From: Myxococcales bacterium
GTDB taxonomy: Bacteria; Myxococcota; Myxococcia; Myxococcales; Myxococcaceae
Length of the DNA: 64,000 bases
Reading direction: 5' to 3'
NCBI GenBank assembly: GCA_016191815.1
Contig: JACPVI010000063.1
Location: 1 to 64,000 of the forward strand
Position 1 is the stretch's first letter, and each line of letters begins with the position of its first letter. The position numbers and the translations under genes are program-made. This document shows positions 1-61,052 of this stretch, one piece after another. Below the pieces are notes generated by a model, which worked only from the letters and a program-made list of their open reading frames with translations, was not told the origin of the DNA and did no database searches.

Positions 1-17
1 CCCCCCCCCCCCCCCCC
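1..17. other. homopolymeric C run at window edge
   Basis: The window opens with 17 consecutive C residues. A run like this exactly at the end of a sequence is more likely a contig-end or sequencing artefact than biology. The bases up to 106 hold nothing I can identify apart from the ribosome site of the first gene. Confidence 0.4.
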
Positions 18-3047: not shown

Positions 3048-4325
3048 TTGCCGCAGGACGAGTCGAACGCCACACGGCCGGGGACGCCCGGGGAGCCGGA
3101 GCCGCCCGCGGCCGCGCTCCCGTGGATCGGCTCGGTCATCGGCGACGTCCAGGCAAGGCTCAAGGCGGGCGGCTGCCTCGGCGTCCTCCTCATCGACCTT
3201 GAACCGCTGTGCAGCATCGAGGCGGAGTGCGGCAGCGCCGTCTACAACGAGATCCTGGCGGCCATCGTCCGCGAGCTGGCGGCGCTCCGGCAGTCGGTCA
3301 TCCGCGCCGCGGACGTGCTCTGCTCGGTGCAGCCGAACGCCGAGGAGCTCGTGCTCCTCCTCGAGCCCTCCCGCTCGGGAAAGACCGTGACCACCACGGC
3401 GCTGGAGGGCGTGGCGGACCGCGTGTGGGCGGCGCTCGCGCCGCGCGTCGCCGAGCTCACGCACCCCTACGGGACCCGCGGCGGCTTCCGGCTGGGCTAC
3501 TCGGTGATGCTCGCGAACTCGATGATCCAGACCGAGAGGCTTCTCCACCGCGCCGTCAACCAGGCGCGCACGCTGGCCACGGACTACTCCCGCCGCGTCC
3601 TCGCGCGCGGGCGCGAGCGCCTGCGGGACCTCATCGTGACCGGCCAGCTCAGCACGGTGTTCCAGCCCATCTACGAGCTCTCCGGACCGACGCTCCGCGC
3701 CTACGAGGCCCTGGTCCGCGGCCCAGCGGACTCCGACCTCACGAGCCCCACTCTGCTGTTCAACCTGGCGCAGCTCACGGACCTGGTCGCGGAGCTCGAC
3801 CGGGCCTGCTGCGAATCCTCCCTCGCGAGCGCGGCGAACTTGCCGGACGGCGCGCTCCTGTTCATGAACGTCATGCCCGCGCTCATCAACGACCCAGCGT
3901 TCCGCGCCAGGATGATCGACTTCGGCGAAAGGAACGCCCCGTCGAGAGTCGTCCTGGAGCTCAACGAGGGGGTGGCCGTCCGCAGCTACCAGGTCCTCAC
4001 CAGGGGGATCGCCGAGCTCCGCGCGCATGGCATCCGGGTCGCGGTGGACGACCTCGGCGCGGGCCACGCCAACCTGGACCACGTCCAGCGCCTCGAGCCC
4101 GACTTCCTGAAACTCGACATCTCGCTCGTGCGCGGCGTACACCAGAGCGCCGTCAAGCAGACGTTCGTCGAGAGCCTAGTCGCCATCGGCCGCGCCCTCG
4201 AGGCGACCGTCATCGCGGAGGGGATCGAGGAGCCCCAGGAGCGCGACGCGCTCGCCTCGCTGAACGTGGCGTGGGGGCAAGGCTTCCTCTTCGCCCGTCC
4301 CGAGCCGGGATTCCTCCAAACCTGA
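3048..4325 (+). CDS. EAL-domain cyclic-di-GMP phosphodiesterase with degenerate GGDEF-like N-terminus
   Basis: A 425-residue protein. The first 190 residues resemble a diguanylate cyclase fold but lack a GGDEF active site. The EAL domain (about 195-425) has the signature YEALVRG (Glu220), MNVMP, the metal ligands LELNE and VAVDDLGAGHANL, the lysine of DFLKLDIS, IAEGIEE and GQGFLFARP, so it looks catalytically complete. It should hydrolyse c-di-GMP in the cytosol. The start is TTG at 3048, placed by the AGGGGAGGG ribosome site; there is no better-placed ATG. Confidence 0.88.
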   Translation: MPQDESNATRPGTPGEPEPPAAALPWIGSVIGDVQARLKAGGCLGVLLIDLEPLCSIEAECGSAVYNEILAAIVRELAALRQSVIRAADVLCSVQPNAEELVLLLEPSRSGKTVTTTALEGVADRVWAALAPRVAELTHPYGTRGGFRLGYSVMLANSMIQTERLLHRAVNQARTLATDYSRRVLARGRERLRDLIVTGQLSTVFQPIYELSGPTLRAYEALVRGPADSDLTSPTLLFNLAQLTDLVAELDRACCESSLASAANLPDGALLFMNVMPALINDPAFRARMIDFGERNAPSRVVLELNEGVAVRSYQVLTRGIAELRAHGIRVAVDDLGAGHANLDHVQRLEPDFLKLDISLVRGVHQSAVKQTFVESLVAIGRALEATVIAEGIEEPQERDALASLNVAWGQGFLFARPEPGFLQT

Positions 4326-4352
4326 TCACGATCTTTGCGCCAACGCAGGTAG

Positions 4353-4401
4353 ACCTCCGACGAGGGGCACGAGGGGCAGCACGCCCTTGCTCGGCGGAGG
4401 T
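4353..4401. terminator. hairpin after the EAL gene
   Basis: ACCTCCG..CGAG..GGGC (from 4353) pairs with GCCC..GCTCGGCGGAGGT (4383-4401) with one mismatch and a small bulge. It lies 28 bases after the EAL stop codon and just before the operator of the next operon. There is no T tract, so it is a terminator by position and stem only. Confidence 0.45.
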
Positions 4402-4405
4402 TGAT

Positions 4406-4427
4406 GGGTGACAAATCTTGTCCACCC
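4406..4427. promoter_or_regulatory. operator-like palindrome before the XRE-DprA operon
   Basis: The inverted repeat GACAA-ATC-TTGTC (4410-4422) is extended by GGGTG/CACCC, giving an imperfect 22-base dyad. It ends 17 bases before the ATG at 4444, where a repressor would block initiation. The XRE protein encoded immediately downstream is the natural candidate. Confidence 0.6.
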
Positions 4428-4443
4428 CTGTACGTTGGTAGTC

Positions 4444-4797
4444 ATGGGTGCAACCGCATCAACCGAACTGGGGGCGCGACTCAGGGAGCTCCGACGGCGG
4501 CGCCATGTAAGCATGAAGGGGCTCGCAAGGCGGCTCGGGGTCGATCCGTCGTTTCTGAGCCGGGTCGAGCGTGGATGCGTCCCCGCACCGGCGCATCTGG
4601 TCCGCCGCGCCGCGACCGAGCTGGGCACCACGGCTGAACCCTTGCTCGTGTTGGCCGGGCACCTCCCAGAGGACGTGCAGGCGATCCTTCGCGCGCAACC
4701 CGAACGGGCGCTGAATCTGCTCCGCAGGCGCCTTGGCGCTCGCCGCAAGGAAGCGGCCCCACGGGCGGCGTCGATGCCGCGCGAGAGGGAGGCATGA
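4444..4797 (+). CDS. XRE-family repressor of the DprA operon
   Basis: A 117-residue regulator with an N-terminal XRE helix-turn-helix: LGARLRELRRRRHVSMKGLA, then RRLGVDPSFLSRVERG. A helical tail (LVLAGHLPEDVQAIL) resembles the C-terminal part of XRE proteins that control small defence operons. An earlier in-frame GTG at 4408 lies inside the operator palindrome, so I prefer ATG 4444, whose transcript would have little or no leader. The stop overlaps the ATG of the DprA-like gene (ATGA), so the two are translationally coupled. Confidence 0.82.
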   Translation: MGATASTELGARLRELRRRRHVSMKGLARRLGVDPSFLSRVERGCVPAPAHLVRRAATELGTTAEPLLVLAGHLPEDVQAILRAQPERALNLLRRRLGARRKEAAPRAASMPREREA

Positions 4798-5843
4798 TGG
4801 ATCGAGGCATTCCCTCGACAAGCGCCACGGGTGTGTTGACCCTTCTGGGTCTGCGGGGAATCGGACCGCAGACGGCTGACCGCCTCGTCACGCGCTTCGG
4901 GACCCTGGGCGAGCTACGCGAGGCCTCGCCGCGCGATCTCGAAGGCGCCGTGTCCGCCGGGGCTCTTCCGACGTTGCGTGAAGAGAAGGCCTGGGAGATC
5001 GCCCACCGCCACGCGCAAGAGCTGCTCGAGGAGGCAGATCGCCGCAGCGTCCAGGTGCTGACCGCGTGGGAAGATACCTACCCGGTCCATCTGCGGACGA
5101 TCCCGGACCGGCCCCTCGTCGTCTACCTACGCGGGCAGCTGCCAACCAGCCCGAGGACGGTCGCGTGCATCGGCACCCGCGAGCCAACCCACTTCGGTGA
5201 GAAGGCGACGCGGGGCATCGTAAGCGCGCTCGTCGAGCGCGGTTGGAGCATCGTGAGCGGACTTGCGCTCGGGGTCGACGCGCTCGCGCACGAGGCCGCG
5301 CTGGAAGCCAAGGGTCACACGGTAGCAATCCTCGGGAACGGCCTCGACGCCGTCTACCCGAAGAAGAATGCCGACCTCGCGGAGCGCATCCTGGCCGCTG
5401 GCGGCGCTTGGATGAGCGAGCAGCCATTCGGCGCCCCCGCCGTTCCACGCAACCTGGTGCAGCGTGATCGGCTTCAGAGCGGCATGTCGGTCGGCACCGT
5501 AGTCATGCAGACCGACATCGTCGGCGGCTCGATGCACACCGTGCGGTTCACGCTTCTGCAGGGGCGCCTGCTGTTCGCGCCCGTCCCGCAGGGTCCGCAC
5601 GCGGCGGAACCAAAGAGTCGCGGCATTCTGGCACTCACGCAGCGGACGGGAGTGGAGCTGGCCCGCCTCCTAGAGACGCAGGGCGAGTACGCGGAGCTCC
5701 TGCGCCGCGAGTATGCCACGCGCCCGGTCGCCACTCCGATCGTCGGCCGCGAGGACTATGACAAGCTCCTCCAGACGCTGGAGGCGGTCGTCGAGGGCCG
5801 TCGCCCCGCCGGGCGTCGTGACCCACAGCTCGGCCTCTTCTAG
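4794..5843 (+). CDS. dprA: DprA/Smf-like Rossmann-fold DNA-processing protein
   Basis: 349 residues. A helix-hairpin-helix-like N-terminus (GLRGIGPQTADRLVTRFG) precedes the DprA Rossmann domain (about 110-320), with VACIGTREPT, IVSGLALGVDALAHEAAL, VAILGNGLDAVYP and RNLVQRDRLQSGMS. Classical DprA loads RecA on incoming single-stranded DNA. Here the gene is coupled to an XRE repressor and a HAD/phosphoribosyltransferase, a context suggesting an immune role rather than transformation. The last five residues are QLGLF (345-349), matching the sliding-clamp-binding consensus, so DnaN contact is likely. Family membership is clear; the role is inferred. Confidence 0.85.
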   Translation: MMDRGIPSTSATGVLTLLGLRGIGPQTADRLVTRFGTLGELREASPRDLEGAVSAGALPTLREEKAWEIAHRHAQELLEEADRRSVQVLTAWEDTYPVHLRTIPDRPLVVYLRGQLPTSPRTVACIGTREPTHFGEKATRGIVSALVERGWSIVSGLALGVDALAHEAALEAKGHTVAILGNGLDAVYPKKNADLAERILAAGGAWMSEQPFGAPAVPRNLVQRDRLQSGMSVGTVVMQTDIVGGSMHTVRFTLLQGRLLFAPVPQGPHAAEPKSRGILALTQRTGVELARLLETQGEYAELLRREYATRPVATPIVGREDYDKLLQTLEAVVEGRRPAGRRDPQLGLF

Positions 5844-5866
5844 CCGCCGCAACCCGGAAAAGACGC

Positions 5867-7099
5867 GTGCCGCCGACGGCCTTCCTGTTCGACCTCGACA
5901 TGACGTTGGTGGATTCTTCGGCGCTCGACGATTGGCGTACGCGTCAATTGTGGCAGCACGTCCGCGCCAACATGGGACAGGTCAAGCCCTTCGCCTTCAG
6001 CACCGTCTCCGCGCACGAGCTGCCTGGCCGGTTGAAGGCGCTCGGGCACCGGGTCGCGGTGGTGACCTCGTCGCCCCGGTGGTACGCGGAGCAGCTCCTG
6101 TCACAGTTCGGCGTGACCTACGACGCGCTCGTAGCCTACGGGGATACGACGCAGCACAAGCCCGACCCGGAGCCCATCAACGCTGCTCTTGCCACGCTCG
6201 GCGCCGCGGCGGAAGACGCCTACCATATCGGCGATGCGCCCATCGACGTTGAGGCGAGCTATCACGCCGGTGTCGCCTCTATTGGCGCGGGCTGGGGGGT
6301 TCGGGACCTCGAAACCTTCTGTTCGGCGGCGCCTGACATCCTCGTGCTCAAGCCGAGCTCGTTGCTCAAGCTCGACACGCTGGAGCGCCGAGGCTACTTC
6401 GCCGAGGTCCTTTCCGACGGCTTGGAACCGAAGGCGCATCGCGGGTCCATCCTCCCGTGTGGTGGCACTCCGGTGCGGTACGCGCTCGGGCGCTACTTCA
6501 CCGCCTCCGACCCACGGCACGCGACGAGCAAGCTGTCATCGAATCTGCTCACGCTGAAGAACGGCGACGGTCCCGCATCCGTGATGGGCCGCGCGCTCGG
6601 TGAGTTCCTGAAGAAGATCGACTGGACCCCAGATTACATCGTCCCAGTGCCGCCCAAGCCCAGCCAGCCTCGGAACCGCTTCAAGGCCGTCCTTGAGGCC
6701 GCAGAGCCGTGGATTCCAGAAGAGACCAACGTTTACCTCGACGGTCTTGCGTGCGTGAAAGAGGTTCAGGGCTACAAGGCCATGGGCCCGCTCGAGCGCG
6801 CGGCGGCCATTCGCGGTGTTTTCGCATCGAAGTACACGTGGAACAACGGGCGCGTGCTGCTCCTGGACGACGTCCTCACGACCGGGGAGACAGTCACGGA
6901 GTCTGCACGCGTGCTCATGGCCAACGCGGTCGCCGAGGTCCGTGTCGTGGCCCTCGGCAAGGACCAGCAAGTCTTCATGCACAAGCAGTGCCCGAGCTGC
7001 GGGCGCACGATGAAGGTGCGGACCAACAGCTACACCGGCGAGAAGTTCTGGGGCTGCTCCGGCTATCCCGACTCCTGTCAGTACAGCGAGAACCTGTAG
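5867..7099 (+). CDS. HAD hydrolase - phosphoribosyltransferase - topoisomerase-type zinc finger fusion
   Basis: 410 residues, three domains. An N-terminal HAD phosphatase has FDLDMTLVDSS, the motif II serine in VVTSSPRWYA, HKPDPEP and GDAPIDVEA. A ComF/PRT-like domain carries the PRPP loop LLLDDVLTTGETV. The C-terminus (about 375-405) is a four-cysteine finger (CPSCGRTM...GCSGYPDSC) like those of topoisomerase I tails. It starts at GTG 5867, 23 bases after dprA, completing the XRE-dprA operon. A nucleotide- or DNA-linked immune function is plausible but unproven. It ends 13 bases from the stop of the convergent phage polyprotein, at the prophage boundary. Confidence 0.82.
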   Translation: MPPTAFLFDLDMTLVDSSALDDWRTRQLWQHVRANMGQVKPFAFSTVSAHELPGRLKALGHRVAVVTSSPRWYAEQLLSQFGVTYDALVAYGDTTQHKPDPEPINAALATLGAAAEDAYHIGDAPIDVEASYHAGVASIGAGWGVRDLETFCSAAPDILVLKPSSLLKLDTLERRGYFAEVLSDGLEPKAHRGSILPCGGTPVRYALGRYFTASDPRHATSKLSSNLLTLKNGDGPASVMGRALGEFLKKIDWTPDYIVPVPPKPSQPRNRFKAVLEAAEPWIPEETNVYLDGLACVKEVQGYKAMGPLERAAAIRGVFASKYTWNNGRVLLLDDVLTTGETVTESARVLMANAVAEVRVVALGKDQQVFMHKQCPSCGRTMKVRTNSYTGEKFWGCSGYPDSCQYSENL

Positions 7100-7112
7100 C
7101 CCCGACTGTTGG

Positions 7113-10100
7113 TCAGGCTGACTGGGTTCGAATCGCATTCCCGCCGATGCTCCAGCCGGAAATTGCGCCGTCCTTGATCTGCTTCCAGAGGTCGTTGTCC
7201 AGTACGCGCGCGGCGAGGAGCCACGTCCCCTTCTTCACCCGCTTGCCGTCGACCTCGAAGTCGACGGGCGCCAGGTACGACTCGAGGATCTTGACCTGGT
7301 CGCCGAGCAGCTCCCGGTGCATGAGGCCGATGTTGCGGTACTCCTCCATGAACCGGTGCGCGGCATCCCGGACCTCGGCGCCCGAGTACACGTCCTTCTG
7401 GGCGTCCACGGTCTCGGGCTCGAGCACGATGCCCAGCACGTAGCGCTCCTCGCCCGTCTTCAGGAGCGGGATGCGCTTGGCGAGCGCGGCGGCGAGCATC
7501 TTCTTGAACTCCTGCGGCTGCGCCAGGTGGATGACCTCCTCGGGGGACATCGGCGGCTCGGCGGTGCGGTCGATGACGACCGGCGTGAACCACGTGATGC
7601 TCTGCTTGCCCCCGGCGCGGTCGATGAGAAGCTCGGTCACCTCCACGCGGATGACGTCGCCCACGTTGGCATCGAGCTTCGCGTTGAACGTCTTCCCGAC
7701 CGGCGCGTAGAGCTTTCCGCCGACGTCCACGGTCTCCTTCCAGCGGTCGGCCTCCTCGCGCGGGACGGGGCCGACGGCGCCGAAGAAGTTGTAGACGTCG
7801 GGCGCGTCCTTCACGGGGTGCCGGTCGTAGACGAGAGCGCGGACCTCGCGGACGAGCTTGAGCTTCGCCCACGCGTCGTTCTCTCCGCCGAGCGAGTAGG
7901 TCGAGGAGATGAGCTTGAGCATGGCGCCCTCGGAGCCCGGGATCTTCGCCGCGCGGTCGATGGCGCGCCGGAGCGCGTCGATGGTGCGGGCAGTCGAAGT
8001 CTCGACTTCCTCCAGGTGCTTGAGTCGCCGTCCCTCGAAGAAGAGATCCAGGACCTCGCGGCGACGCACGTAGGGCTCGAAGGTGAGGTTGCGGTGGCGC
8101 CAGTAGAGGATGTCGAAGACCTGCACGCGCGCGCGGGAGTCGTCGCGCGCCTCGTCCGTGCGGAACTCTCCGAGCTCGCGCCGCGGCACCGGGTCGCCCG
8201 CCTCGTCGAAGTCGAAGAACTCGCCGTCGAGGATGAAGTCCCCGGGGAGGGCGGCGAGCTCGGCGGAGAGGTTCGGCAGCGCCGGCGAGATGTCGCGCTT
8301 GGTGTCCTCGGTGAAGACGAGGACCTTGTCCCCGGCCTTCTCCAGGACGACGCGGAAGCCGTTGAACTTGGGCTCGATGGCGATGCCGCCCTTGAGCATC
8401 TCGGGCGTGGCCCACGCGAGGGCGGCGTCCACCTCCCGGAACTCGTTGGTCGCGCGCGGCGCCGGCTTCATCGGCTGGAAGATGGCGAGCGGCCGGAGCT
8501 GCGCGCGGTCGACGTCGGGGTCCTTCCGCGCCGGGTCCCAGATCTGCACCCCGTCCCGCACCGGCACCTCGGCCTTGGCCTCCGGGATGGCGCGGCCCGG
8601 GTCCTGGCCCCGCGCGAGCTGCCAGATGTCGCTGCCCGCCTCCTCGGCGGTGAGCGTGAACACGCCGCGGAGCTTCTGGCCCTCGAAGCGGACCTTCTTG
8701 AACGTCCGCTGGTCGTCGAGCAAGACGGCGCGCCCCCGGTCCTGGATGCGGATGGTCGAGGGCGTCTCCTTGGTGTCGTTCAGGACGTCGCCGCCCACGC
8801 CCTGGCCGGGGGCCACGTCGCCGTCGAAGGCGAGCAGCTCCTTGGACCGCCGCGGCGTCGCCACCGCGGTGATGCGCTCCTCGCCGGAGAGCGGGTCTGC
8901 CTGCAGCACCCAGGTGTCGAGCCCTGCGCCCGCGCGGTCGAGGGCCAGGTGCCACACCTGCCGCGACGGCGCGGCGCGGATGACCGTCTGCCCCTTCCAG
9001 AACTGCCACGAGAGCGTGAAGTCGACCTCGCGCGGCTGCTTCTCGACCTCCGCGGGCACGTCGTCGTCCACCCACTCCACGTCGTCGAGCTTGCGGAGCT
9101 TGCACGAGGCGACGAAGAGCCGGCTGCGCTTCTGCCACTGGCCCGCGCTCCGTCCCTCCGGAATGCGCATCGTGAAGGGTCGCCCGACCTTGGCGAGCGC
9201 GCGCCGCGCCCGGGCCGAGTCCGTGTACGCGATGACGTAGTCACCCTTGAGCTTGGACACCGCGGCGGCGATCTCCTCGGGCGCGATGCCGTCGCCGACC
9301 GCCCACTCCTCGGTGTAGGGCGGGTCCAGGAAGAAGAGCGTGCCCGGTCCGTCGCACTCCCCGAGCGTCTTCTCCCAGTCCTGCGTCACGAGCCGCACGC
9401 CCTTCAGGCGCTCCTGGAACTTCCACAGCTCGCCCAGGTCGTAGGTCTGCCCGTCGTGGATGGTGGCGAAGCCGCTCATGTTCGGCTTCGCGCCCCAGGT
9501 GCAGAGCCGGCCGTAGATGAGCTTCCAGACGCGCTCGGCGTCCGAGCCCGGCTCGCTCGCCCGGGCGCGCTCGAACCCGGTTCGGGAGACCTTCCACGGA
9601 TACCGCTCGAGCGCCGCGAACGACTTCTTGCTCAGCCGTTGGATGTAGCGGAGCGCGAAGACCACCTCCGGGTTGGCGTCCGCGAGGACCTCCTCGCGCG
9701 CCGGCTCCTTGGCGAAGAAGACCGCCGCGGCGCCGCAGAAGGGCTCGACGTACCGGGCGTGCTCCGGGAGCCGCGCCGCGAGCTTCCGCGCGTACTTGGC
9801 GGACCCGCCCCACTGCTGGAACGGGATGACGCGGGCCTTCTCCACCTCGGCATCGGTCGTCGGGGCGGAGAGGAAGAGCTTCTGCACGACGCGCCGGAAC
9901 TCGCCATCGACGAGCCTGATGTTGTCCGCGGTGAAGAAGCCCGACTCCACGAGCGCGTCGCGCATCCCGCGGGCATCCTCGCCCTTGGCCTCCCAGTAGC
10001 GGTGCTCCTTCGGCGTCACCCGCTCGAGCGACAGCGGCAACGCCGAGTAGCCGTCGGGCGGCATCGAGCGCGTCTCGACGGCGCGGGGCTTGACGACCGA

Positions 10101-13100
10101 GGGCAAGAGCTCCTTCGACAGGAACGCCGTCCAGAACGCCTCGCCCTCGGGCGAGCGGCGCCCGGCCTCGATTTCCCCCTGGGGCTCGCCGGGCTGCCCG
10201 GTGAGGAGCCTGAAGTAGAGGATGCCGTTCAGCTCCTGGCCGCCGGAGAAGAAGTACTCGTGGGAGAAGGGCTTCTGCAGGCCCCACTCGACCTTGGGGT
10301 GGTCGATGGCGACGATGACGCCCTTCTCGTTCGCGGTCGCGCCCACCTCGCCCTCGCCGAAGACCTCGCCGTCCACGTCGAGCCAGACCACGGGCTGGCG
10401 GGCCTTGGGGGCGGCGAAGACCTTGGCGGGGGCCACCAGCGGCTTCGCGTAGCGGTCGCCCTGGACGGAGAACGACCGCGCGATGCGCCGCGCCTCCTCG
10501 ACGGTGTCGACCGCGTCCGCGATGGCGCCGGGGCGCTGGAGCGAGAGCGTCCAGCCGACCAGGTGGTCGTCCACGCGCAGCCGCAGGTCGCCGTGCACGC
10601 TCCTGCCGCGGAAGTGGTACTGGAGCACCGCCGGGTGCGGGCCGCGCTCCTTGGGCAGGTCGAGCAGCGGGTCATCCTGCTTCTCGACGAGCCGCATGCG
10701 CTTGACGTCGAGCTTCGGCCGCACCTCCACCACGAGGTCGGCCAGCTCGACGTGGCTCGTGAACGGCCCGGCGTACTCGTCGTCGAGGAGCTGAAGGCGC
10801 GACGACAGCTCGGGCGGGAGCATGCGGCCCAGGCGGAACTCGATCGCCTTCCGCAGCTCGGGCGGTAGGTCGCCGCGGACGAGCACGTCGACGTCGTTCT
10901 TCGTGGCGCCGTTGTTGGCGAGGCCGCCGACCAGGTAGAGGAACGGCGCGCGCAGCTTGAAGGACTGGAAGTGGGGCAGGACCTCGGCGAGGGTGATCTC
11001 CGGCCCCATCGCCTGCCCGGAGGGGTGGACCGGCGCGAGCGCGCGCTTCACGGTGCGCCGCAGGGTCGCGGCCTCGCGGGCGAGCTCGTCGTCGGCCGCG
11101 TGCTCCATGCCGCGCCGGTGCAGCTCGTCCTGAACGAACAGCTCGGCGTTCACGAGGTCCTCGCGCTTGAGGTCCGCGGCCGACAGCCGGTCGTTGCCGG
11201 CGAAGTTGCCGCCGAAGAGCTGGTGCAGCCGGCGGTGGATGGACAGCAGCTCCTCGTCGGGCACGCCGCGCAGGCGCTCGGGGTGGACCTCGGCGACCTC
11301 GAGCTTGCGGGTCTCGACGGCGAGCGCCGCGACCCGTGCCCTGACGACCTCGGGCACGTCGCCGGCGTCAGCCTCGACGTCGATGACCTCGAGCAGCTCG
11401 TCGAGCTCCCACCCGCCCCCGAGGGACTTCTCGGTGATGGCGTAGTTCGCGATGAGGAGCTGGGGCAGCGTCTTCGGGCCGCCGACGCCTCGCATCGCCC
11501 GGATGCTGCGGGGTGTCCGGATCTTCCGGACGTGAAAGCCCTTCGTGTCGAGCTTGCCGCGCGTCCCGTAGGTCACGAGGAACCGACCCTTGATGCCGTC
11601 GAGCACCTTGCGGAACTCCATCTCGTCGAAGATGTCCTCGCCGATCTCGACGTCGTGGCCCGGGTACGGCGGGTCGAGGAAGAAGAACGTGTCCTTGCCG
11701 TCGAACTCCTTCACGAGCTCGGCGTAGTGGGCGTGGCGGACCTTCGCCGCCCGGAGGCGGTCCCGGTGCAGCTCGATGCGGTCGATGGTCCGCGCCTCGA
11801 CGCCCTCGGCGTTCGGGTTGTAGCTCTTGCCGCGCAGCTTCCCGTAGGAGAAGTGCGAGAGGTACAGGAACCGGTAGAGCTTCTCGACCTTGTTCCTCGG
11901 CCGAGCCTCCTGCAGCGCCTTGAACGTCGTCCTCCGGCCGACCCATTCCTTCTTGCGCAGGGCCTCGAGCTCGCCGTCGGTCAGCGTCTTGATGGCCTTG
12001 AAGGCGAAGGCGATGTCGGGGTCCGCGTCGCCGAGCACCTCGACCTCGACCGGCTCCTTTTCGAAGAAGACGGCCGCGCTGCCAGCGAACGGCTCGACGT
12101 AGACCTTGTGCGGCGTGATGAGCTTGACGAGGCGGGCCGCCAGCCGTTTCTTGCCCGCGGGAGAGCCCCAGATGGTCTTCTCCACGGGGTCGGCCGCGGT
12201 GATGTTCGGCAGCAGCATCTGCCGCTCCTGTGGCTCGGCGGCCTTCTCGAGGCGGTAGTTGGTCGCGACCAAGGTCACGCTCTTGCCGAGGCCTTGGCCT
12301 TGGTGCGCGCCGACGCCCGAGGTGTGCCGCCAGCGCGCGACGTGGAAGCCCTTGAAGAGCTGGTCCGTGCCCTCGGAGCGCGTGCCGTAGGTGACGAGGA
12401 ACTTCCCGTCGATGCGCCGCAGCGCCTTGCCGAAGCGCTTCTCGTCCCAGTCGTCGTGGCCGACCTCCGCCTCGTACCCAGGGTACGGCGGGTCGAGGAA
12501 CAAGAACGTGTCTGGTGCGTCGAACTCGTCGACCACGTCCTCGTAGTCGGCGCACCGGACGACGACGTTCTTGAGCCGCGGCGCGAACTTCTCCAGGCGG
12601 TCGATGAACCGGGCCTCGACGCCGATGTGCTTGTCCGGCATCGTGCCGCGCCGCAGCTTGTTGAACGAGAAGTACGCGAGGTAGGCGAAGCGGTAGAAGC
12701 GCTCGACATCGTCCTCGGGCTCGGACTCGTAGAGCTTCCTGAACCGCTCCGCGTCGCCCACCCAGGACCTGCGCTTGAGGCGCGCGAGCTTCGCGGGCGT
12801 GAGGTTCTTCACGAACCGGAACGCGAAGGCGATCTCAGGGTCGCGGTCGGCGAGCACCTCGACCTCGGACGGCTCCTTGGCCCAGAACACCTGCGCGCCA
12901 CCCGCGAAGGGCTCCACGTATACGCGGTGCTTCGGGATGGCCGCGACGATGCGCTTCGCCAGGAGCTTCTTCCCGGCGGGAGAGCCCCACAGCGACTTCT
13001 CGATGTCACAGTCGCCGCGCAGGAGGGCGAGGAGGGAGCCCGCGCGGGCGAGCGCCTCTTCGGCCGCGACATCGGGACGCGACGCCTCGACGAATGCGCG

Positions 13101-13163
13101 CGCCCGCGCGAGCGCCGCCTCCACGGGCTCGGCCCGCTTCGCGATGGGAGCCGCCTCTTCCAC
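7113..13163 (-). CDS. phage polyprotein: three Dam methyltransferases, nucleotidyltransferase-like, LigD-PE-like, DNA ligase, XkdF protease
   Basis: One uninterrupted frame of 2016 residues. Two near-tandem Dam-type (D12) methyltransferases have VEPFAGG/VEPFAGS and DPPYPG at Asp224 and Asp497. A nucleotidyltransferase-like motif follows (VGGLA...NDVDVLV, Asp757/759), then a LigD 3'-phosphoesterase-like segment (HFRGRSVHGDLRLRV, His850). A third, diverged methyltransferase has DPPYTE (Asp1280), followed by a degenerate LigD-like segment. An ATP-dependent ligase core starts at Lys1599 (KFNGFR; Asn where Asp is usual), with ILDGEFFDF, EGAMLK and AKLKL, plus an OB-like segment. The C-terminus (about 1890-2016) is an XkdF-type phage protease, with likely catalytic His1949 (GLMHRE) and Ser2005 (GWSIGG). 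GTG 13163 is chosen because it overlaps the upstream stop; ATG 13271 would read back through the neighbour. Confidence 0.85.
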   Translation of the reverse strand: MEEAAPIAKRAEPVEAALARARAFVEASRPDVAAEEALARAGSLLALLRGDCDIEKSLWGSPAGKKLLAKRIVAAIPKHRVYVEPFAGGAQVFWAKEPSEVEVLADRDPEIAFAFRFVKNLTPAKLARLKRRSWVGDAERFRKLYESEPEDDVERFYRFAYLAYFSFNKLRRGTMPDKHIGVEARFIDRLEKFAPRLKNVVVRCADYEDVVDEFDAPDTFLFLDPPYPGYEAEVGHDDWDEKRFGKALRRIDGKFLVTYGTRSEGTDQLFKGFHVARWRHTSGVGAHQGQGLGKSVTLVATNYRLEKAAEPQERQMLLPNITAADPVEKTIWGSPAGKKRLAARLVKLITPHKVYVEPFAGSAAVFFEKEPVEVEVLGDADPDIAFAFKAIKTLTDGELEALRKKEWVGRRTTFKALQEARPRNKVEKLYRFLYLSHFSYGKLRGKSYNPNAEGVEARTIDRIELHRDRLRAAKVRHAHYAELVKEFDGKDTFFFLDPPYPGHDVEIGEDIFDEMEFRKVLDGIKGRFLVTYGTRGKLDTKGFHVRKIRTPRSIRAMRGVGGPKTLPQLLIANYAITEKSLGGGWELDELLEVIDVEADAGDVPEVVRARVAALAVETRKLEVAEVHPERLRGVPDEELLSIHRRLHQLFGGNFAGNDRLSAADLKREDLVNAELFVQDELHRRGMEHAADDELAREAATLRRTVKRALAPVHPSGQAMGPEITLAEVLPHFQSFKLRAPFLYLVGGLANNGATKNDVDVLVRGDLPPELRKAIEFRLGRMLPPELSSRLQLLDDEYAGPFTSHVELADLVVEVRPKLDVKRMRLVEKQDDPLLDLPKERGPHPAVLQYHFRGRSVHGDLRLRVDDHLVGWTLSLQRPGAIADAVDTVEEARRIARSFSVQGDRYAKPLVAPAKVFAAPKARQPVVWLDVDGEVFGEGEVGATANEKGVIVAIDHPKVEWGLQKPFSHEYFFSGGQELNGILYFRLLTGQPGEPQGEIEAGRRSPEGEAFWTAFLSKELLPSVVKPRAVETRSMPPDGYSALPLSLERVTPKEHRYWEAKGEDARGMRDALVESGFFTADNIRLVDGEFRRVVQKLFLSAPTTDAEVEKARVIPFQQWGGSAKYARKLAARLPEHARYVEPFCGAAAVFFAKEPAREEVLADANPEVVFALRYIQRLSKKSFAALERYPWKVSRTGFERARASEPGSDAERVWKLIYGRLCTWGAKPNMSGFATIHDGQTYDLGELWKFQERLKGVRLVTQDWEKTLGECDGPGTLFFLDPPYTEEWAVGDGIAPEEIAAAVSKLKGDYVIAYTDSARARRALAKVGRPFTMRIPEGRSAGQWQKRSRLFVASCKLRKLDDVEWVDDDVPAEVEKQPREVDFTLSWQFWKGQTVIRAAPSRQVWHLALDRAGAGLDTWVLQADPLSGEERITAVATPRRSKELLAFDGDVAPGQGVGGDVLNDTKETPSTIRIQDRGRAVLLDDQRTFKKVRFEGQKLRGVFTLTAEEAGSDIWQLARGQDPGRAIPEAKAEVPVRDGVQIWDPARKDPDVDRAQLRPLAIFQPMKPAPRATNEFREVDAALAWATPEMLKGGIAIEPKFNGFRVVLEKAGDKVLVFTEDTKRDISPALPNLSAELAALPGDFILDGEFFDFDEAGDPVPRRELGEFRTDEARDDSRARVQVFDILYWRHRNLTFEPYVRRREVLDLFFEGRRLKHLEEVETSTARTIDALRRAIDRAAKIPGSEGAMLKLISSTYSLGGENDAWAKLKLVREVRALVYDRHPVKDAPDVYNFFGAVGPVPREEADRWKETVDVGGKLYAPVGKTFNAKLDANVGDVIRVEVTELLIDRAGGKQSITWFTPVVIDRTAEPPMSPEEVIHLAQPQEFKKMLAAALAKRIPLLKTGEERYVLGIVLEPETVDAQKDVYSGAEVRDAAHRFMEEYRNIGLMHRELLGDQVKILESYLAPVDFEVDGKRVKKGTWLLAARVLDNDLWKQIKDGAISGWSIGGNAIRTQSA

Positions 13164-13741
13164 TACGCCCCCGGGTTGCGCACGCCGGCCGGGTCGGCGC
13201 CCCACGCCGGTCCGTCCTCGGCCTTCCGCACGCCCTCGCGGAACTCCGGCGTGTTCATATCGAAGGGCCACGTCGCGTCCTCGCCCTTGGCCACCTTGCC
13301 CTCGCCGCCCTTGTCCGCCTTCTGAGCCGGGGCGCGCAGCGCCTGCAGCTCCGTGCCGAGCCGGGTGAGCGCCTTGTTCAGGTCCTCGGGGTTCGCTGCG
13401 AAGGCCGAGCTCCCGAGCGCCGCCTCGAGCGCGACCGGGGACACCTCCTTCTCCGACTTGTCCGCGGCCGCGGTGGTCTCCTCCACGAAGACCTGGACCT
13501 CGATGGCCTCGCTCTCGCTGTCCACGAACGCCTGCTTGGCCGCCTCCACCGTCTGGCCGAGGGCGCGCAGGCGGCGGACGGCCTTGTCGGGCGGCTCCTT
13601 CGCCGCCTTCTCGAGCTGCGCGATCGCGTAGCCGACGAGGTCATCGGGTCCCATCCGCTGCGTCTTGGCCACCGGGCGCGTGTCCTTGAGCACCCGCTCG
13701 ACCGCCGTCGAGACCTTCTCCAGCATCGTCATCGCTTCCAT
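13163..13741 (-). CDS. phage head-operon protein, possible scaffold
   Basis: 192 residues, largely helical and charged (DDLVGYAIAQLEKAAKE, VRRLRALGQTVEAAKQAF), with a lysine/glycine-rich tail and WPFDMNTPEFREGV near the C-terminus. It sits between the MuF/portal genes and the protease-bearing polyprotein, where scaffolding proteins are often encoded, and its stop overlaps the GTG of that gene. The start at ATG 13741 has an AAGGAGAGG ribosome site. The scaffold role is inferred from position and helical character; no family motif was recognised. Confidence 0.7.
   Translation of the reverse strand: MEAMTMLEKVSTAVERVLKDTRPVAKTQRMGPDDLVGYAIAQLEKAAKEPPDKAVRRLRALGQTVEAAKQAFVDSESEAIEVQVFVEETTAAADKSEKEVSPVALEAALGSSAFAANPEDLNKALTRLGTELQALRAPAQKADKGGEGKVAKGEDATWPFDMNTPEFREGVRKAEDGPAWGADPAGVRNPGA

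Positions 13742-15122: not shown

Positions 15123-15133
<11 letters not shown>
14075..15133 (-). CDS. MuF/SPP1 gp7-type phage head morphogenesis protein
   Basis: 352 residues. An N-terminal helical half precedes the MuF-like domain: VVSMVFTNRARTFTQVAAFEEAG, ATSEVCRFMHGKVF and the C-terminal LPPLHGRCRSTL. The C..HG...HGRCRS pattern is the usual signature of phage minor head proteins. These sit beside the portal and are injected or help DNA exit. ATG 15133 lies inside the end of the portal gene, an 11-base overlap. The protein ends shortly after the MuF motif, so no toxin is fused to it. Confidence 0.82.
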
Positions 15134-17050
<1,917 letters not shown>

Positions 17051-17051
<1 letters not shown>

Positions 17052-17347
17052 CACACGGCCCTCTCGTCGAAGCCGGCGAGCACGGCCTTCGGATCGCCGG
17101 ACGTGTAGGCCGCCGTCCGCACCCGAACGAACTCCAGCGTCTCCGGCACGGGCACGACGCCCGGCGCGCTCTGCGCGGCGCCGACGGCGAAGTAGTCGCT
17201 GCCGTCGATGCTGCCCTCGACCTGCACCGTCGCGACGAACGTGCCGTGGATCTGGACGTACTTGTCGCGGAAGCGGAACACCTGCTCCGCGCGACCGGCC
17301 TCGACCGCCTGCTTGACCTCGAGCCGCACCTTCTCCGGGCGTGCCAT
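17051..17347 (-). CDS. small phage structural-region protein
   Basis: 98 residues, beta-rich (YVQIHGTFVATVQVEGSIDG, FVRVRTAAYTSGD), consistent with a small beta-sandwich virion or head-tail component. The ATG follows AGGAGGACGCTG and overlaps the stop of the preceding gene. No family was assigned; it is supported by tight packing between TerL and portal. Confidence 0.65.
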
Positions 17348-17616
17348 CAGCGTCCTCCTCTCTTCCGCCTGCTGGGCTGCGCGGGCGCCGGCGTTGACGG
17401 TGGTGACTCCGCCGGGAACACCACCGCGGCGAGGCCTCCGTCGGCCGTGAACGACAGCGACCGCACCCGGCGGCCGTCGGCGGCCAGCCGCGCGAGCGCC
17501 GCCCGGCGCGCGTCCTCGAGCGTCTCCGCAGACACCGCGAAGTCGCTGGCCGGCACGGCCTTCGCCTCCGGCTTCGCGTCGCGGGCAATCTCCAGCACCT
17601 TGACCGGGAAGTTCAC
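17347..17616 (-). CDS. small phage protein after terminase
   Basis: 89 residues starting at GTG 17616, preceded by a strong AGGAGG site 8 bases after the TerL stop. It begins [19 protein letters not shown], has a compact alpha/beta segment ([33 protein letters not shown]) and ends in a proline-rich basic tail. The stop overlaps the next ATG. Function is unknown. Confidence 0.6.
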
Positions 17617-17624
17617 TGCGCCTC

Positions 17625-19055
17625 CTATCCGATGATCCGCACGCCGACCTCGATGACGTCGCCCGGCTGCGGGCCGCGCTCCTTGCGGCACGCGAGCATC
17701 ACGGCCCAGGCGCGGTCGGCGTGGCCGCGAGCCACCTCGTCCCGCTCGACCTCGAACGACGGTTTGCCGCTCGGGGTGAGCCGCCGCTTGATGCTGTGGA
17801 CCTGGGCCACGAGGTCTCGGTCCTTGGGCAGCACGACGTCCTTGCGCTGCAGGAGAATCTTGAGGTCGTTCGCCCAGGTCTCCTTCGACTCGTTGGTGAA
17901 CGTCTCGGGAACCACCTGCGCGAAGTCGCGGCGGAGGTTCTCCGCAAGGTGCATGCCGAGGCCGTTCTGGTCGATGGACAGCCGGCCGATGGGCAGCGTG
18001 TTGAGCAGCCTGCGGAGGTCCGCCTCCTGCTCGGCGAACGGTACGCGGTCGTAGCTCCGGAGCAGCCGGCACTCCTTCTTGCCGTCCAACTCCTCGAACA
18101 GCGCCAGCTCCGAGAGGTCCCGCTTGCGTCCGACGTCGAAGCCGGCGACGAGCCGGCCCTTCACGACCGGGAGCCCGGCGAAGTCGTCCGCGAGCACGAG
18201 GTCGTCGCTCGTGCACGGGAGGATGAGCTCGTAGGGGAAGAACGAGTAGCTCTCGTCGCAGTACTGGCACTCGAACTCCTGCTCGAAGTCCTCGAGCAGC
18301 AGCGAGTCGAACTGGTCCTGGATGTCCTTGGTGCCGAAGGCGCGCACGCGCTGCTCGGTGGGCATGAGCACCGCCTCGCGCGAGGCGCGCTGGACGTCCG
18401 TGCTGAAGAACCGGCACAGCCACCACGGCGCCCGCAGCCGCCAGTAGGTCGGGTAGCGGCGCAGCTCCTGGCGGGCAATCTCCCAGAACACCCCGCGCCG
18501 GCCAAGCGGCGACGAGCAGCCCGTGAGCTGACCGCGGGAACGGAGGATGAGCGCGGTCGAGCCCTTGTAGACCTCGCGGTCGTTGGCGTAGTGGGCGAGC
18601 TCGTCCAGGTACAGGTCGCCCTTCTTCCCGCGCGGCGCCTTCGACGGGTTCGAGATGATGCGCGAGACGCGCTTCGAGGCGCTGTTGGAGAGGAAGGCGA
18701 GTTCCGTCTTCGAGTCGGTGACGAGCTTCTTGCGGAAGGCGAGCGGCAACTCCTCGGCGAGCTGGCGCGCGTAGTTCACCTTTTCTTTCGCATCCTCGAG
18801 GTTGTAGCTGACCATCACCGAGGTGTGCGCCTCGCGCAGGTGACAGCGCGCGATGGCTTCGCACGCGAACAGGAACGAGAAGCCCACCTGGCGCGCCTTC
18901 TCGACCCACCTGTACTTCTTCGCCGAGCGCAGGAACGCCACCTGGTACGGCTCGAAGACCAGCGGCTCCTCGTTGTAGTGACCGACGCCCGTGAGGAACC
19001 CGAGCTCGGTGCCGAGCCAGTCGAGGAGATCCTGCTCGTCCCTCTTCACGACCAC
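17625..19055 (-). CDS. phage terminase large subunit
   Basis: About 476 residues. The deviant Walker A is [16 protein letters not shown] and Walker B is [10 protein letters not shown]. The nuclease domain has the RNase-H-type acidic residues in [21 protein letters not shown] and [16 protein letters not shown] in the middle (ECQYCDESY) may bind metal. It powers DNA packaging and cuts the concatemer. GTG 19055 is the most likely start; GTG 19049 is possible. It is divergent from the integrase at 19134, and TerS lies 2 kb upstream across the HNH gene. Confidence 0.88.
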
Positions 19056-19098
19056 GAGCGGCCCGCCGCTCGCCTTGCCTTCCTCCGCGACCCGAGCC

Positions 19099-19119
19099 TG
19101 AGTGTGTGGAAGACACTCA
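19099..19119. promoter_or_regulatory. symmetrical 7-7-7 site upstream of the integrase gene
   Basis: TGAGTGT (19099-19105) and ACACTCA (19113-19119) form perfect 7-base arms around a 7-base centre, 14 bases before the integrase ATG and in the divergent gap with TerL. The geometry (inverted arms, 7-base spacer) fits either an operator or a tyrosine-recombinase core site. Confidence 0.5.
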
Positions 19120-19133
19120 CCAGGAGGTTCGCC

Positions 19134-19751
19134 ATGTCCGCCTACGCCGCCGCCATCCGCCGCCCGCCCCGCACGCTCACCGAGGTCGAGCAGGCCCTGC
19201 TGCTCAAGGTCACCGGGGAGCACCGGGAGGGCTTCCGGGACCACGTCATCCTGGCAGTCGCCCTCGGCACGGGGCTGCGCGAGCATGAGATCTCCGCCCT
19301 CGACGTGGGCGACGTCCTGCACGACGACGGCCGCGTCCGCCGGCGTGTCGCGCTGCGCGTCTTCAAGCGGGCGACCGACGACCCCGCGCCGCAGGAGGTC
19401 TTCCTGCCCGACAGCGTCTGGTACAAGCTGGGCAAGTTCGTCGCCTGGAAGAAGGGGCGCGGCGAGAGCCTCGAGCCCGGGGCCCCGCTCTTCGTCTCCC
19501 GGCGTGGGGAGCGGATCGCCACCCGGACGCTGCGCCACCTCTTCCGCGTCTGGCAGCAGCGGGCAGGGTTCGACCGCCTCTTCAGCTTTCACTCCTTGAG
19601 GCATTCGAGCCTGACCAATGCCTACCGGTCCACGCGCGACATCCGCCTCGTCCAGCGCCTCGCCCGGCACAAGAGCGTCGACACGACCACCGTGTATGCC
19701 GCGCCCAGCGACGAGGACATCCTCCGCGCCGTCCGCGACCTGCCTTGCTAG
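19134..19751 (+). CDS. compact tyrosine recombinase (catalytic domain only)
   Basis: 205 residues covering just the catalytic domain. Conserved Arg is in [12 protein letters not shown], the HxLRH box in [13 protein letters not shown], and the second His and nucleophile Tyr in [14 protein letters not shown]. The usual N-terminal core-binding domain is missing, as in minimal Xer/resolvase-like enzymes. The ATG has AGGAGG 7 bases upstream. It is read against the packaging genes, between TerL and the HNH gene, an odd place for a phage integrase; resolution of multimers is an alternative role to integration. Confidence 0.82.
19710..19751 (+). repeat. integrase 3' end, copy 1 of a direct repeat
   Basis: The last 42 bases of the integrase gene (encoding [13 protein letters not shown] plus stop) recur at 20492-20533 with 34 of 42 identical bases, including a stop codon in register. 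The two copies flank the core of the HNH gene. Confidence 0.7.
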
Positions 19752-19771
19752 ATCGAGCGCGAGAGCGGGCT

Positions 19772-20995
19772 TCATGCGACTCTCCCTCGAATGCGCCGCG
19801 GGCGGAACTCCGGCAGGAGCGCCTCGATCAAGAACGTGAACTCGGCCGCCATCCTGAGCGTGCGCTCGATCGCGGCGAGCCGGTGCGGGCTATAGAACTC
19901 CTTGGGCGAGCGCACGCCCTTGCTCGCGTTGCAGGCGCGGCAGAGCAGCACGGCGTTGCCGGGCTCGATCGGCACGCCCTCGGCCGCTGGCCAGTGGTGG
20001 TCAATGGTCAGGTCATCGGGCGAGTTGCAGGACGCACAGCGCTCGCAGAAGAGCTTCCAGGTGACACGGTACGCAATGAAGGAGAAGCTCGGTTCAAGCC
20101 CGAGAACACGATCCTTCCGCCGCTTCTGCTCTGCGGAGTTCCGGAGCCGGAAGAGGGCTCCGGGTGCGCCCGCATCGCCGCGCATCCGGCACTTCCGCTC
20201 TTGCTTGCGGAGTCTGCACACCGGCGATCGCGGGTAGCAGGCCCCGCAGTATCCGCGCATGCAGTGCTGTACGTGGCCGCGACCGCAGCCCAGACACTCC
20301 AAGGCGTAGCGCGACCACCGCGCTGGAGGAAGGACGTCATCTTGGGGGAGCGTCCCGCCGCGGTATCTCGCCTGGTAGCAGCGCGCGCAGAATCCCTGGC
20401 CGTAGTGAGGCCGATTCACCGAAGAACAGTCACGGCACTGGTCCCAACGAAGCGACCAGAAGGCCGGTCGGCTATCTGTGCGGCTTCCAGAGACGAGGAC
20501 CTGCTGCGCACCGTCCGCGACCTGCATTGTTGACGGAACTTGACGCCGTCCATATCCCTCGGCGCTGGTTTCCAATTTCGGGAACGCGCCTTCTCCGGCA
20601 CCTTTGGCTGCGTCCATTTTCGCCTCGGCTCCCCGGTGCGAGACGGCAGTAGGAACGGCCGGCGCGCGTGGCGAAAATGGGGGATCGCCCCCCGGGGGGT
20701 GCGCCGCGTCGTTGGCCGCGTCGCGCGCCACGTTGGCCCACGTCGCGTCGTCGCCGGGCCCGGCGATCTCCGGCGCGACCTCGTTCGGCGGCGCGCCCAC
20801 GGGCGCGACGGGCGCGCACGCCACGACGGCGCCCGCGGCCTGGCCCGGGTCAGGAAAGCGGCAATCCGCTTCCGGACCTGGCGCCGCAAACGCGCGTGCA
20901 ACCTCGCGAATCTCCGAGGTGGCCGGCTCGCGGATTGCCGCTTTCGTCACGAAGCGGCAGTCCGGAGCCGCGTCAGTGGACCGCGCGTTCGCCAT
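19772..20995 (-). CDS. HNH endonuclease with zinc-ribbon segments
   Basis: The C-terminal third is a clear HNH nuclease: [16 protein letters not shown], then [18 protein letters not shown]. Two cysteine clusters precede it (QCRDCSS...GFCARCYQ and LECLGCGRG...YCGACYP). The frame opens at ATG 20995, overlapping the TerS gene, but its first 156 residues are low-complexity Ala/Pro. ATG 20527 (MQVADGAQQ) is a credible alternative start. HNH genes beside TerL often assist cos cleavage in HK97-type phages; a homing-type insertion is the alternative, favoured by the flanking direct repeats. Confidence 0.75.
20492..20533 (+). repeat. integrase 3' end, copy 2 of a direct repeat
   Basis: This copy encodes [13 protein letters not shown] plus stop on the plus strand and matches the end of the integrase gene. 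Similarity extends weakly about 15 bases upstream and stops at the stop codon. On the other strand it overlaps a possible start (ATG 20527) of the HNH gene. Confidence 0.65.
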
Positions 20996-43330: not shown

Positions 43331-43561
43331 ATGCCCGACGAAATCCTGACCCTACCCGAAGTCGCCCAGCTCCTGAAGGTGGCGGAGAAGACCGTCTACA
43401 CGATGGCCCAGAATGCGGAGATCCCGGCATTCAAGGTCCGTGGCCAGTGGCGCTTCAAGCGAACGGACATCGATCGGTGGATCGAAGAACGCAAGGCGGC
43501 CTCGCGTGACGACGAAGGGGGCAGCGATGAGAAGGGCCCGACGTCGAAGAGGCCGCGATGA
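43331..43561 (+). CDS. excisionase/MerR-type HTH protein, first gene of the defence operon
   Basis: 76 residues: DEILTLPEVAQLLKVAEKTV, YTMAQNAEIPAFKVRGQWRF and KRTDIDRWIEERKAA form a winged helix of the excisionase (HTH_17) family. Such small proteins head several defence operons and act as autorepressors. The tail is acidic and variable. Its stop overlaps the helicase ATG (ATGA). The palindrome at 43290-43314 is the likely binding site. Confidence 0.82.
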   Translation: MPDEILTLPEVAQLLKVAEKTVYTMAQNAEIPAFKVRGQWRFKRTDIDRWIEERKAASRDDEGGSDEKGPTSKRPR

Positions 43562-50508: not shown

Positions 50509-50522
50509 AAGGCGAGAACAAC

Positions 50523-60925: not shown

Positions 60926-61052
60926 GATCACGGCGCTCTCTCGTGAAAGTTCCTGCCTCGGACCCTCAACAAGTAAACGTCTGGAACACGGTCGTCTGGG
61001 GACATCCTGAACGTCGGGAGCGACGCTCGCTCGGGTGTGGTTCGGCGGCCGC

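What the first reader, a model, noticed from the sequence alone, without database searches (positions are those of the whole stretch)
5826..5843. Perfect clamp-binding tail on the DprA-like protein
The protein ends exactly with QLGLF (345-349), the consensus by which polymerases and mismatch-repair proteins bind DnaN. I do not recall this as a normal DprA feature. It would tie the system to replication forks, for example to sense phage replication.
Basis: partly seen in the sequence, partly recalled or inferred. Interest (0 to 1): 0.5.

Follow-up and report, generated by a model that had tools for sequence, protein, structure and literature searches.

The report
Clamp-binding tail on ShosA antitoxin
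A bacterial antitoxin of the ShosTA phage-defence family ends in the short peptide that repair enzymes use to hold on to the DNA replication clamp; the same kind of tail recurs in about half of its sampled relatives, which suggests that the antitoxin works at replication forks.

Summary
The 349-aa DprA-like protein (4794-5843) ends exactly in QLGLF. It is a ShosA-type antitoxin: the next gene is a HAD + phosphoribosyltransferase + Zn-ribbon toxin whose best full-length structural matches are ShosT entries. The tail is not seen in canonical-type DprA (0 of 33) or in background ORFs of this genome (0 of 280). It recurs in ShosA proteins after a variable, disordered linker: in 12 of 15 members of the close clade (QLGLF, QMSML, QTSML, QPSLF, QISMI) and in 21 of 41 clusters of the sampled family (QLSLL, QLSLF, QLDLL, QISMDF...), against 0.7 expected from shuffled tails. 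The E. coli ShosA in the PDB has it too (9vzo: QLSLL-GDE); the 8zva chain stops before it. Against: two close relatives from the genome's own taxonomic family lack the motif, and so do 20 of the 41 clusters. Best reading: a real DnaN-binding motif that tethers the antitoxin to the clamp, so that its DprA fold promotes recombinational repair at forks damaged by ShosT. Sensing of phage replication is possible but has no direct support. Binding was not tested. A search for ShosA with 'sliding clamp' found no paper; the main ShosTA paper could not be read.

The parts
4794..5843 (+). ShosA-type DprA-like antitoxin gene, 349 aa; its ATG lies in an ATGA overlap with the upstream HTH gene
   Evidence: PADLOC ShosA 2.8e-71; Pfam DNA_processg_A 1.3e-53
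4836..4943 (+). helix-hairpin-helix region, residues 15-50
   Evidence: Pfam HHH_2 8.1e-6, just under its curated cut-off
5037..5600 (+). DprA Rossmann-type core, residues 82-269
   Evidence: Pfam; fold matches 3maj and 8zva
5793..5825 (+). linker, residues 334-344, variable in length and sequence among orthologues
   Evidence: alignment A2; 22 to 28 residues between the DY motif and the last five in 13 rows; pLDDT under 50 for 337-349
5826..5840 (+). QLGLF, candidate DnaN (beta clamp) binding motif at the exact C-terminus
5867..7099 (+). ShosT-type toxin gene, 410 aa: HAD hydrolase, phosphoribosyltransferase (LLLDDVLTTG), C4 zinc ribbon
   Evidence: Pfam HAD_2 5.4e-19, Pribosyltran 2.1e-4 (under its cut-off); catalytic motifs conserved; best full-length fold matches 8zvd, 8zvb, 8zvc
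6986..7096 (+). C4 zinc ribbon of the toxin, residues 374-410
   Evidence: Pfam Zn_ribbon_Top1 1.3e-6, under its curated cut-off; four cysteines invariant in 12 of 12 rows
4408..4797 (+). XRE-type HTH gene directly upstream, perhaps the operon's regulator; not found in the related loci compared
   Evidence: Pfam HTH_31 3.4e-12; tblastn hit only in the window's own locus among 32 loci

Best explanation
The protein is a ShosA-family antitoxin, and its last five residues are a genuine clamp-binding motif. A flexible linker lets QLGLF dock in the hydrophobic pocket of DnaN, so the DprA-like body, which probably binds DNA and helps recombination, is carried on clamps at replication forks and fresh gaps. 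There it repairs or prevents the damage that the phosphoribosyltransferase/pyrophosphatase toxin ShosT causes through the nucleotide pool. When a phage shuts down or diverts host replication or expression, this protection fails and ShosT kills or stalls the infected cell. Shown by computation: the family, the gene pair, the motif, its conservation and the predicted disorder of the tail. Inferred: DnaN binding, action at forks, failure of protection during infection.
For: Identity of the pair: PADLOC ShosA 2.8e-71; neighbour with HAD, PRTase and Zn-ribbon matches whose three top PDB fold matches, over about 400 columns, are 8zvd and 8zvc (titled ShosT) and 8zvb (titled the ShosTA system); the antitoxin model matches DprA 3maj and ShosA 8zva. 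Motif: Q in 12 of 13, S in 12 of 13, [LM] and [FLI] in 13 of 13 at positions -5, -3, -2, -1 of the A2 rows, at 3.1-3.9 bits against at most 2.33 bits at -4 and at -6 to -24, after a linker of differing length and in the only segment of three or more residues with pLDDT under 50. Recurrence: strict motif in 21 of 41 clusters (80% identity) of 66 ShosA-type proteins; shuffled tails give mean 0.70, highest 5 in 5000; 8 of 10 new clusters from a scan whose patterns lay in the core. Some motifs lie 2-3 residues before the end (QLSLL-GDE, QFSLF-DE, QLNMF-NF). Canonical-type DprA 0 of 33, background 0 of 280. The E. coli ShosA in the PDB has it: the 9vzo chain runs to QLSLLGDE, the 8zva chain stops 14 residues short. 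Partner: one DnaN match in the genome, with the stretches TRYILNG, ATDGHRL and VVMPMR kept. Mechanism: ShosA binds DNA and likely recruits factors for recombination (review); RecB and RecF are also clamp partners (PMC13254535, passages).
Against: Two close relatives from the window genome's own taxonomic family (L004 63%, L005 59%) end KGRLLQSEA and KSTMLQTGE, without the motif, and none is hidden in any frame of the 150 bases after their stops. 20 of 41 clusters fail the strict motif, among them the SopEPhi type (NTSLL, NNSLF, NNYLF), the two Bacteroidota, PfAC02a, phiOH2 and Mana. L137 and L138 were fetched because their tblastn match reached the tail; without them 19 of 39. Clusters are not independent events (7 label changes on the tree of 38 rows, against 12.9 for shuffled labels). 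No binding, affinity or phenotype was measured, and the main ShosTA paper could not be read.
Confidence: 0.7

Rival explanations
1. The tail is a sensor of phage replication: ShosA bound to clamps is displaced, or signals, when phage replication takes over forks or clamps, and this frees ShosT.
For: A clamp motif would place ShosA where such a change is felt; [quoted passage not shown]
Against: No feature found here points to sensing. The one published trigger I could read of is T7 Gp0.7, described as an inhibitor of host RNA polymerase. It could be true together with the best explanation.
Confidence: 0.2
2. The tail binds the toxin, or another ShosA subunit, and the likeness to a clamp motif is coincidental.
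For: RqlI and RqlH, a related pair, bind each other (PMC4670107, passages).
Against: The same consensus recurs with unlike toxins: HAD-PRTase-Zn fusions, separate PRTase and HAD genes (L062; L063), a 161-aa PRTase in E. coli (L096) and the 424-aa ShosT of phage P2_4C9. The conserved letters (Q, S, L/M, F/L) are those of the clamp consensus.
Confidence: 0.08
3. The tail is a C-terminal degron that keeps the antitoxin short-lived.
For: Antitoxins are often proteolysed (recalled); the tail is short and hydrophobic and often terminal.
Against: Several members carry 2-3 further residues after the motif, and Q at its first position is conserved, which a terminal hydrophobic degron would not require (recalled knowledge of degrons).
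Confidence: 0.05
4. ShosA jams the clamp, as the toxins SocB and RipA are reported to do, so that the tail itself slows replication.
For: Toxins of other toxin-antitoxin pairs target the clamp pocket (PMC12795458, passages).
Against: There it is the toxin; here the motif is on the presumed antitoxin.
Confidence: 0.04

Closest known systems
ShosTA (E. coli APEC O1; PDB 8zva, 9vzo, 8zvb-8zvd)
   Same: DprA-like gene next to a HAD/PRTase-type toxin; folds match; a clamp-type tail, QLSLL-GDE
   Different: Sequence match to 8zva only in the core (residues 85-272, 1.3e-25); here the motif is at the exact end, and the toxin has a C4 Zn ribbon, while the P2_4C9 ShosT has four scattered cysteines; my searches found no report of the tail
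RqlHI / PsyrTA
   Same: DprA-like antitoxin with a PRTase toxin (PMC4670107, passages); PADLOC PsyrA 6.6e-18 and PsyrT 3.3e-5
   Different: The toxin there is a RecQ-like helicase with a PRTase domain; the one RecQ-linked relative looked at here (L070) ends KAKGGLL, no strict motif
Canonical DprA/Smf
   Same: DprA core and fold
   Different: The genome's own other DprA (L001) and 33 canonical-type proteins end otherwise, without the motif
DNA polymerase II and other clamp clients
   Same: Identical pentapeptide QLGLF at the C-terminus (PMC3716654, passages); RecB QVEMEF is like the hexameric tails QISMDF and QTSMAF
   Different: Unrelated proteins; only the motif is shared

Membership tests
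ShosTA toxin-antitoxin/defence | DprA-like antitoxin of ShosA type | tested here: met
   PADLOC ShosA 2.8e-71; fold match 8zva
ShosTA toxin-antitoxin/defence | adjacent phosphoribosyltransferase/pyrophosphatase-type toxin | tested here: met
   HAD, PRTase and Zn ribbon; motifs conserved; ShosT entries are the top full-length fold matches. PADLOC ShosT by sequence is weak, 6.7e-5
ShosTA toxin-antitoxin/defence | toxicity, neutralisation and phage resistance | not testable with these tools
   needs expression and phage assays
beta-clamp client (clamp-binding motif) | sequence Q-phi-x-[L/M]-[F/L] or its hexameric form | tested here: met
   QLGLF; definition from PMC11139829 (passages)
beta-clamp client (clamp-binding motif) | lies in an accessible, often disordered segment or C-terminal tail | tested here: met
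   residues 337-349 are the only segment with pLDDT under 50
beta-clamp client (clamp-binding motif) | conserved in orthologues | tested here: met
   12 of 15 in the close clade, 21 of 41 clusters in the family; not met in L004, L005 and, strictly, L042
beta-clamp client (clamp-binding motif) | host clamp with an intact pocket | tested here: met
   one DnaN match; pocket stretches match P. aeruginosa beta 4tr8; mapped to the E. coli residues named by eye
beta-clamp client (clamp-binding motif) | measured binding to DnaN | not testable with these tools
   no complex prediction or assay available here
Canonical competence DprA | C-terminal winged-helix domain (recalled) | tested here: not met
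   no such Pfam match listed; the model ends in a helix, 321-333, and a disordered tail

The most novel reading that the evidence does not exclude
Clamp tethering is an ancestral, so far unremarked working part of ShosA antitoxins: the antitoxin rides on DnaN, and the state of the clamp at forks gates the toxin, so that the cell's own replication machinery acts as the safety catch of a phage-defence system.
Probability: 0.25. Interest if true: 0.8.

Novelty: new variant of a known kind. Interest (0 to 1): 0.55.

Why it matters
ShosTA is described as acting by damage and repair of DNA, but how the DprA-like antitoxin finds the place to act is, as far as I could read, open. A clamp motif gives a specific, cheap test: remove or mutate five residues. 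It also shows that the deposited 8zva chain lacks this tail, and it would add a phage-defence antitoxin to the clients of the bacterial clamp, where the toxin-antitoxin parts I saw reported are toxins (SocB, RipA).

Tried and rejected
Chance: rejected by background, shuffles and conservation. A normal DprA feature: rejected (0 of 33, six of 39 sources giving no ORF under its filter; an earlier run had 0 of 38, with one row, L011, showing another end than). A frameshift hiding the motif in L004/L005: none in any of three frames of the 150 bases after their stops. Toxin-docking and degron: see rivals. A promoter for the operon: none by a sigma-70 scan of 4000-7300, which says little here. A tRNA at a prophage end: none in the window. 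A home-made PRTase pattern found nothing even beside known ShosT genes and was dropped; one search used tblastn on 30 loci instead: 28 have a toxin-like match (not L071, L156; five of the 28 weak: L154, L158-L161, E 1e-10 to 4e-5). Scans without relatives; brought back the loci. Rows left out of the 66 proteins: cut by contig ends L043, L092; repeats or near repeats L033, L039, L055, L059, L074, L082-L084, L086-L091, L095, L098, L133-L135, L140-L143; loci without a DprA gene L068, L069, L072; DprA without a toxin neighbour on Pseudomonas plasmids L035-L037; canonical-type L060, L061, L130. L145-L148 are in the 66 though they repeat L129/L136 loci (same clusters). Many further tblastn hits listed were never fetched.

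Full report
The observation. The ORF 4794-5843 on the + strand encodes 349 aa and ends ...GRRDPQLGLF; QLGLF is 5826-5840 and the stop 5841-5843. Its ATG lies in an ATGA overlap with an XRE-type HTH gene (4408-4797), and 23 bases after its stop a 410-aa ORF begins (5867-7099).

What the protein is. PADLOC calls it ShosA (2.8e-71) and, more weakly, PsyrA (6.6e-18); Pfam finds the DprA core (1.3e-53) and weak helix-hairpin-helix matches. The neighbour has HAD hydrolase matches and weaker phosphoribosyltransferase and topoisomerase-type Zn-ribbon matches, with the HAD and PRPP-loop motifs and four ribbon cysteines conserved in 12 of 12 rows. AlphaFold2 models of both are good (best-model mean pLDDT 86.4 and 86.6). 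The first matches DprA 3maj (4.4e-19) and ShosA 8zva (2.3e-18). The second has as its three best matches 8zvd and 8zvc (titled ShosT) and 8zvb (titled the ShosTA system), over 402-427 columns (E 6.8e-10 to 1.5e-8), with a high rmsd (17-18), which I take as a different angle between domains. So this is a ShosTA-type pair. The genome has one further DprA match, on another contig, with an unlike end (L001, GRRYEKV).

Is the tail more than chance? The pattern for QLxLF-stop (Leu as CTN) hits once in the 6.77-Mb genome, here; the pattern read backwards hits three times. A wider motif, Q..[LM][FLI] or Q..[LM].[FLI] within three residues of the end, is in 0 of 280 ORFs from 395 kb of the genome, in 1 of 43 ORFs of the window, and in 0 of 33 canonical-type DprA proteins (39 sources given, six without an ORF under the filter).

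Close relatives. Apart from the genome itself, the two best hits in the 195 genomes of the phylum that were searched, both from the window's own taxonomic family, are 63% and 59% identical and lack the motif: KGRLLQSEA and KSTMLQTGE; no frame of the next 150 bases holds it either. A 66% relative, L043, is cut by its contig before the tail. The other close relatives, from Acidobacteriota, rhizobia, Methylobacterium, Hydrogenophilaceae and an unplaced MAG (51-57% identical in alignment A2), end QPSLF, NPSLF, QMSML, QTSML and QISMI, each next to the same kind of toxin. In the 13 rows of A2 the positions -5, -3, -2 and -1 carry Q 12/13, S 12/13, [LM] 13/13 and [FLI] 13/13, at 3.1 to 3.9 bits, while position -4 and positions -6 to -24 have 2.33 bits or less. 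The stretch between a conserved DY and the last five residues is 22 to 28 residues long in these 13 rows. The codons differ synonymously in places (CAA/CAG, ACC/ACG, TTG/CTC). On a tree built without the last 25 residues, the close clade has 15 rows, 12 with the strict motif; L004 and L005 are sisters (99/99), so one loss is enough there, and the third, L042, has N for Q. In the model, 337-349 is the only segment of three or more residues under pLDDT 50.

The wider family. More distant antitoxins beside split or fused toxins end QGQLL, QISMDF, QTSMAF and QLNMF-NF. The E. coli ShosA with solved structures is carried by phage P2_4C9 (L129) and ends QQLSLLGDE. The PDB chain 9vzo matches it to this end; the chain 8zva matches residues 22-335 and lacks the last 14. 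Paracoccus ends QLSLF, Pseudomonas fragi QFNLDI, Sinorhizobium alkalisoli QASFL and a genome of the Mesorhizobium order QLSFF-DGD; the first two were fetched because their matches reached the tail, so they are biased picks, and the last two fail the strict motif. A last scan of viral contigs, by patterns in the core, gave 17 loci, 14 with the strict motif (QLSLL-GDE, QLSLL-EGD, QLDLL-GTS, QQSLDL, QLPLI, QFSLF-DE, QLSLL, QLQLL); four of the 17 repeat loci already held; by clusters 8 of 10 new ones have it. In all, 66 sequences form 41 clusters at 80% identity and 21 carry the strict motif; shuffling the last 25 residues gives a mean of 0.70 and at most 5 in 5000 trials. Before that scan the count was 13 of 31, with 0.38 expected and at most 4 in 2000 shuffles, and the same test at other end points in those proteins hit 85 of 8651 times. 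The 20 misses include the SopEPhi type (NTSLL, NNSLF, NNYLF), two Bacteroidota, PfAC02a, phiOH2 and Mana. Some misses keep the hydrophobic part with N or K in place of Q; N for Q is reported to have only modest effects on binding (PMC11139829, passages), but I did not count them.

The partner. The genome has one DnaN match, an ordinary beta clamp by PDB sequence matches; the stretches that form the motif pocket (TRYILNG, ATDGHRL, VVMPMR) are kept in its alignment with P. aeruginosa beta. QLGLF is the end of the E. coli Pol II peptide solved on the clamp (PMC3716654, passages).

How it most likely works. A review's summary of Pu et al. 2025 says that ShosT is a phosphoribosyltransferase and pyrophosphatase that disturbs purine metabolism and leads to DNA duplications, filamentation and death; that ShosA binds DNA and probably recruits factors for homologous recombination; and that T7 Gp0.7 is a trigger (PMC12593503, passages). 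The clamp is also used by recombination proteins, RecF and RecB among them (PMC13254535, passages). A clamp motif on ShosA supplies a missing address: it would carry the DprA body to forks and gaps where the toxin's damage appears. Family, motif, conservation and predicted disorder are shown; binding and function are inferred. That the motif also follows unlike toxins, and sometimes lies 2-3 residues before the end, speaks against a toxin-docking peptide and against a terminal degron.

Novelty. Searches of the held library: DprA with 'clamp-binding motif' and DnaN (one paper); DprA with 'sliding clamp' (13 papers, of which I opened two, PMC12448304 and PMC12795458, passages only; no passage shown describes a clamp motif on DprA); clamp motif with anti-phage terms (10 of 771 listed); a mixed DprA/clamp search (15 of 35 listed); ShosA with 'sliding clamp' (none). 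ShosTA names by themselves: (40 of 152 listed). None of what I saw reports this tail. The main ShosTA paper is not held, so I cannot exclude that it mentions the tail.

Surroundings. The pair is convergent with a run of minus-strand phage genes (a protease-bearing ORF 7113-13271, portal 15123-17588, terminase 17625-19775, RuvC-like resolvase, exonuclease, helicases), somewhat as ShosA genes of E. coli and Salmonella prophages lie beside a P2-like portal gene. Further on lies a defence cluster with HmaA, HmaB and HmaC matches and a second HmaC with a restriction-type gene.

Noticed in passing
window 7113-13271 (-): One 2052-aa ORF joins three D12-class adenine methyltransferase matches, an ATP-dependent DNA ligase domain and an XkdF-type phage serine protease: an odd fusion, or an unusual phage polyprotein.
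   Followed up: partly
window 43558-53315 (+): HmaA, HmaB and HmaC matches in a row (PADLOC 1.3e-188, 1.2e-116, 8.8e-126), followed by a PDC-M30A match in the ORF at 53377-54468.
   Followed up: partly
window 58874-63986 (-): A second HmaC (E 0) next to a type II restriction-enzyme-like match, on the other strand.
   Followed up: no
L160, end of the antitoxin: This antitoxin ends FDQLTLLDELKDPQLSLL, with two clamp-type motifs whose starts lie 11 residues apart.
   Followed up: no
L038 3383-4801: In Deinococcus wulumuqiensis plasmid pDrdI a HAD domain and a DprA domain are fused in one protein, without a clamp-type tail.
   Followed up: no
window 1-17: The contig starts with a run of 17 C, probably an assembly edge artefact.
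   Followed up: no
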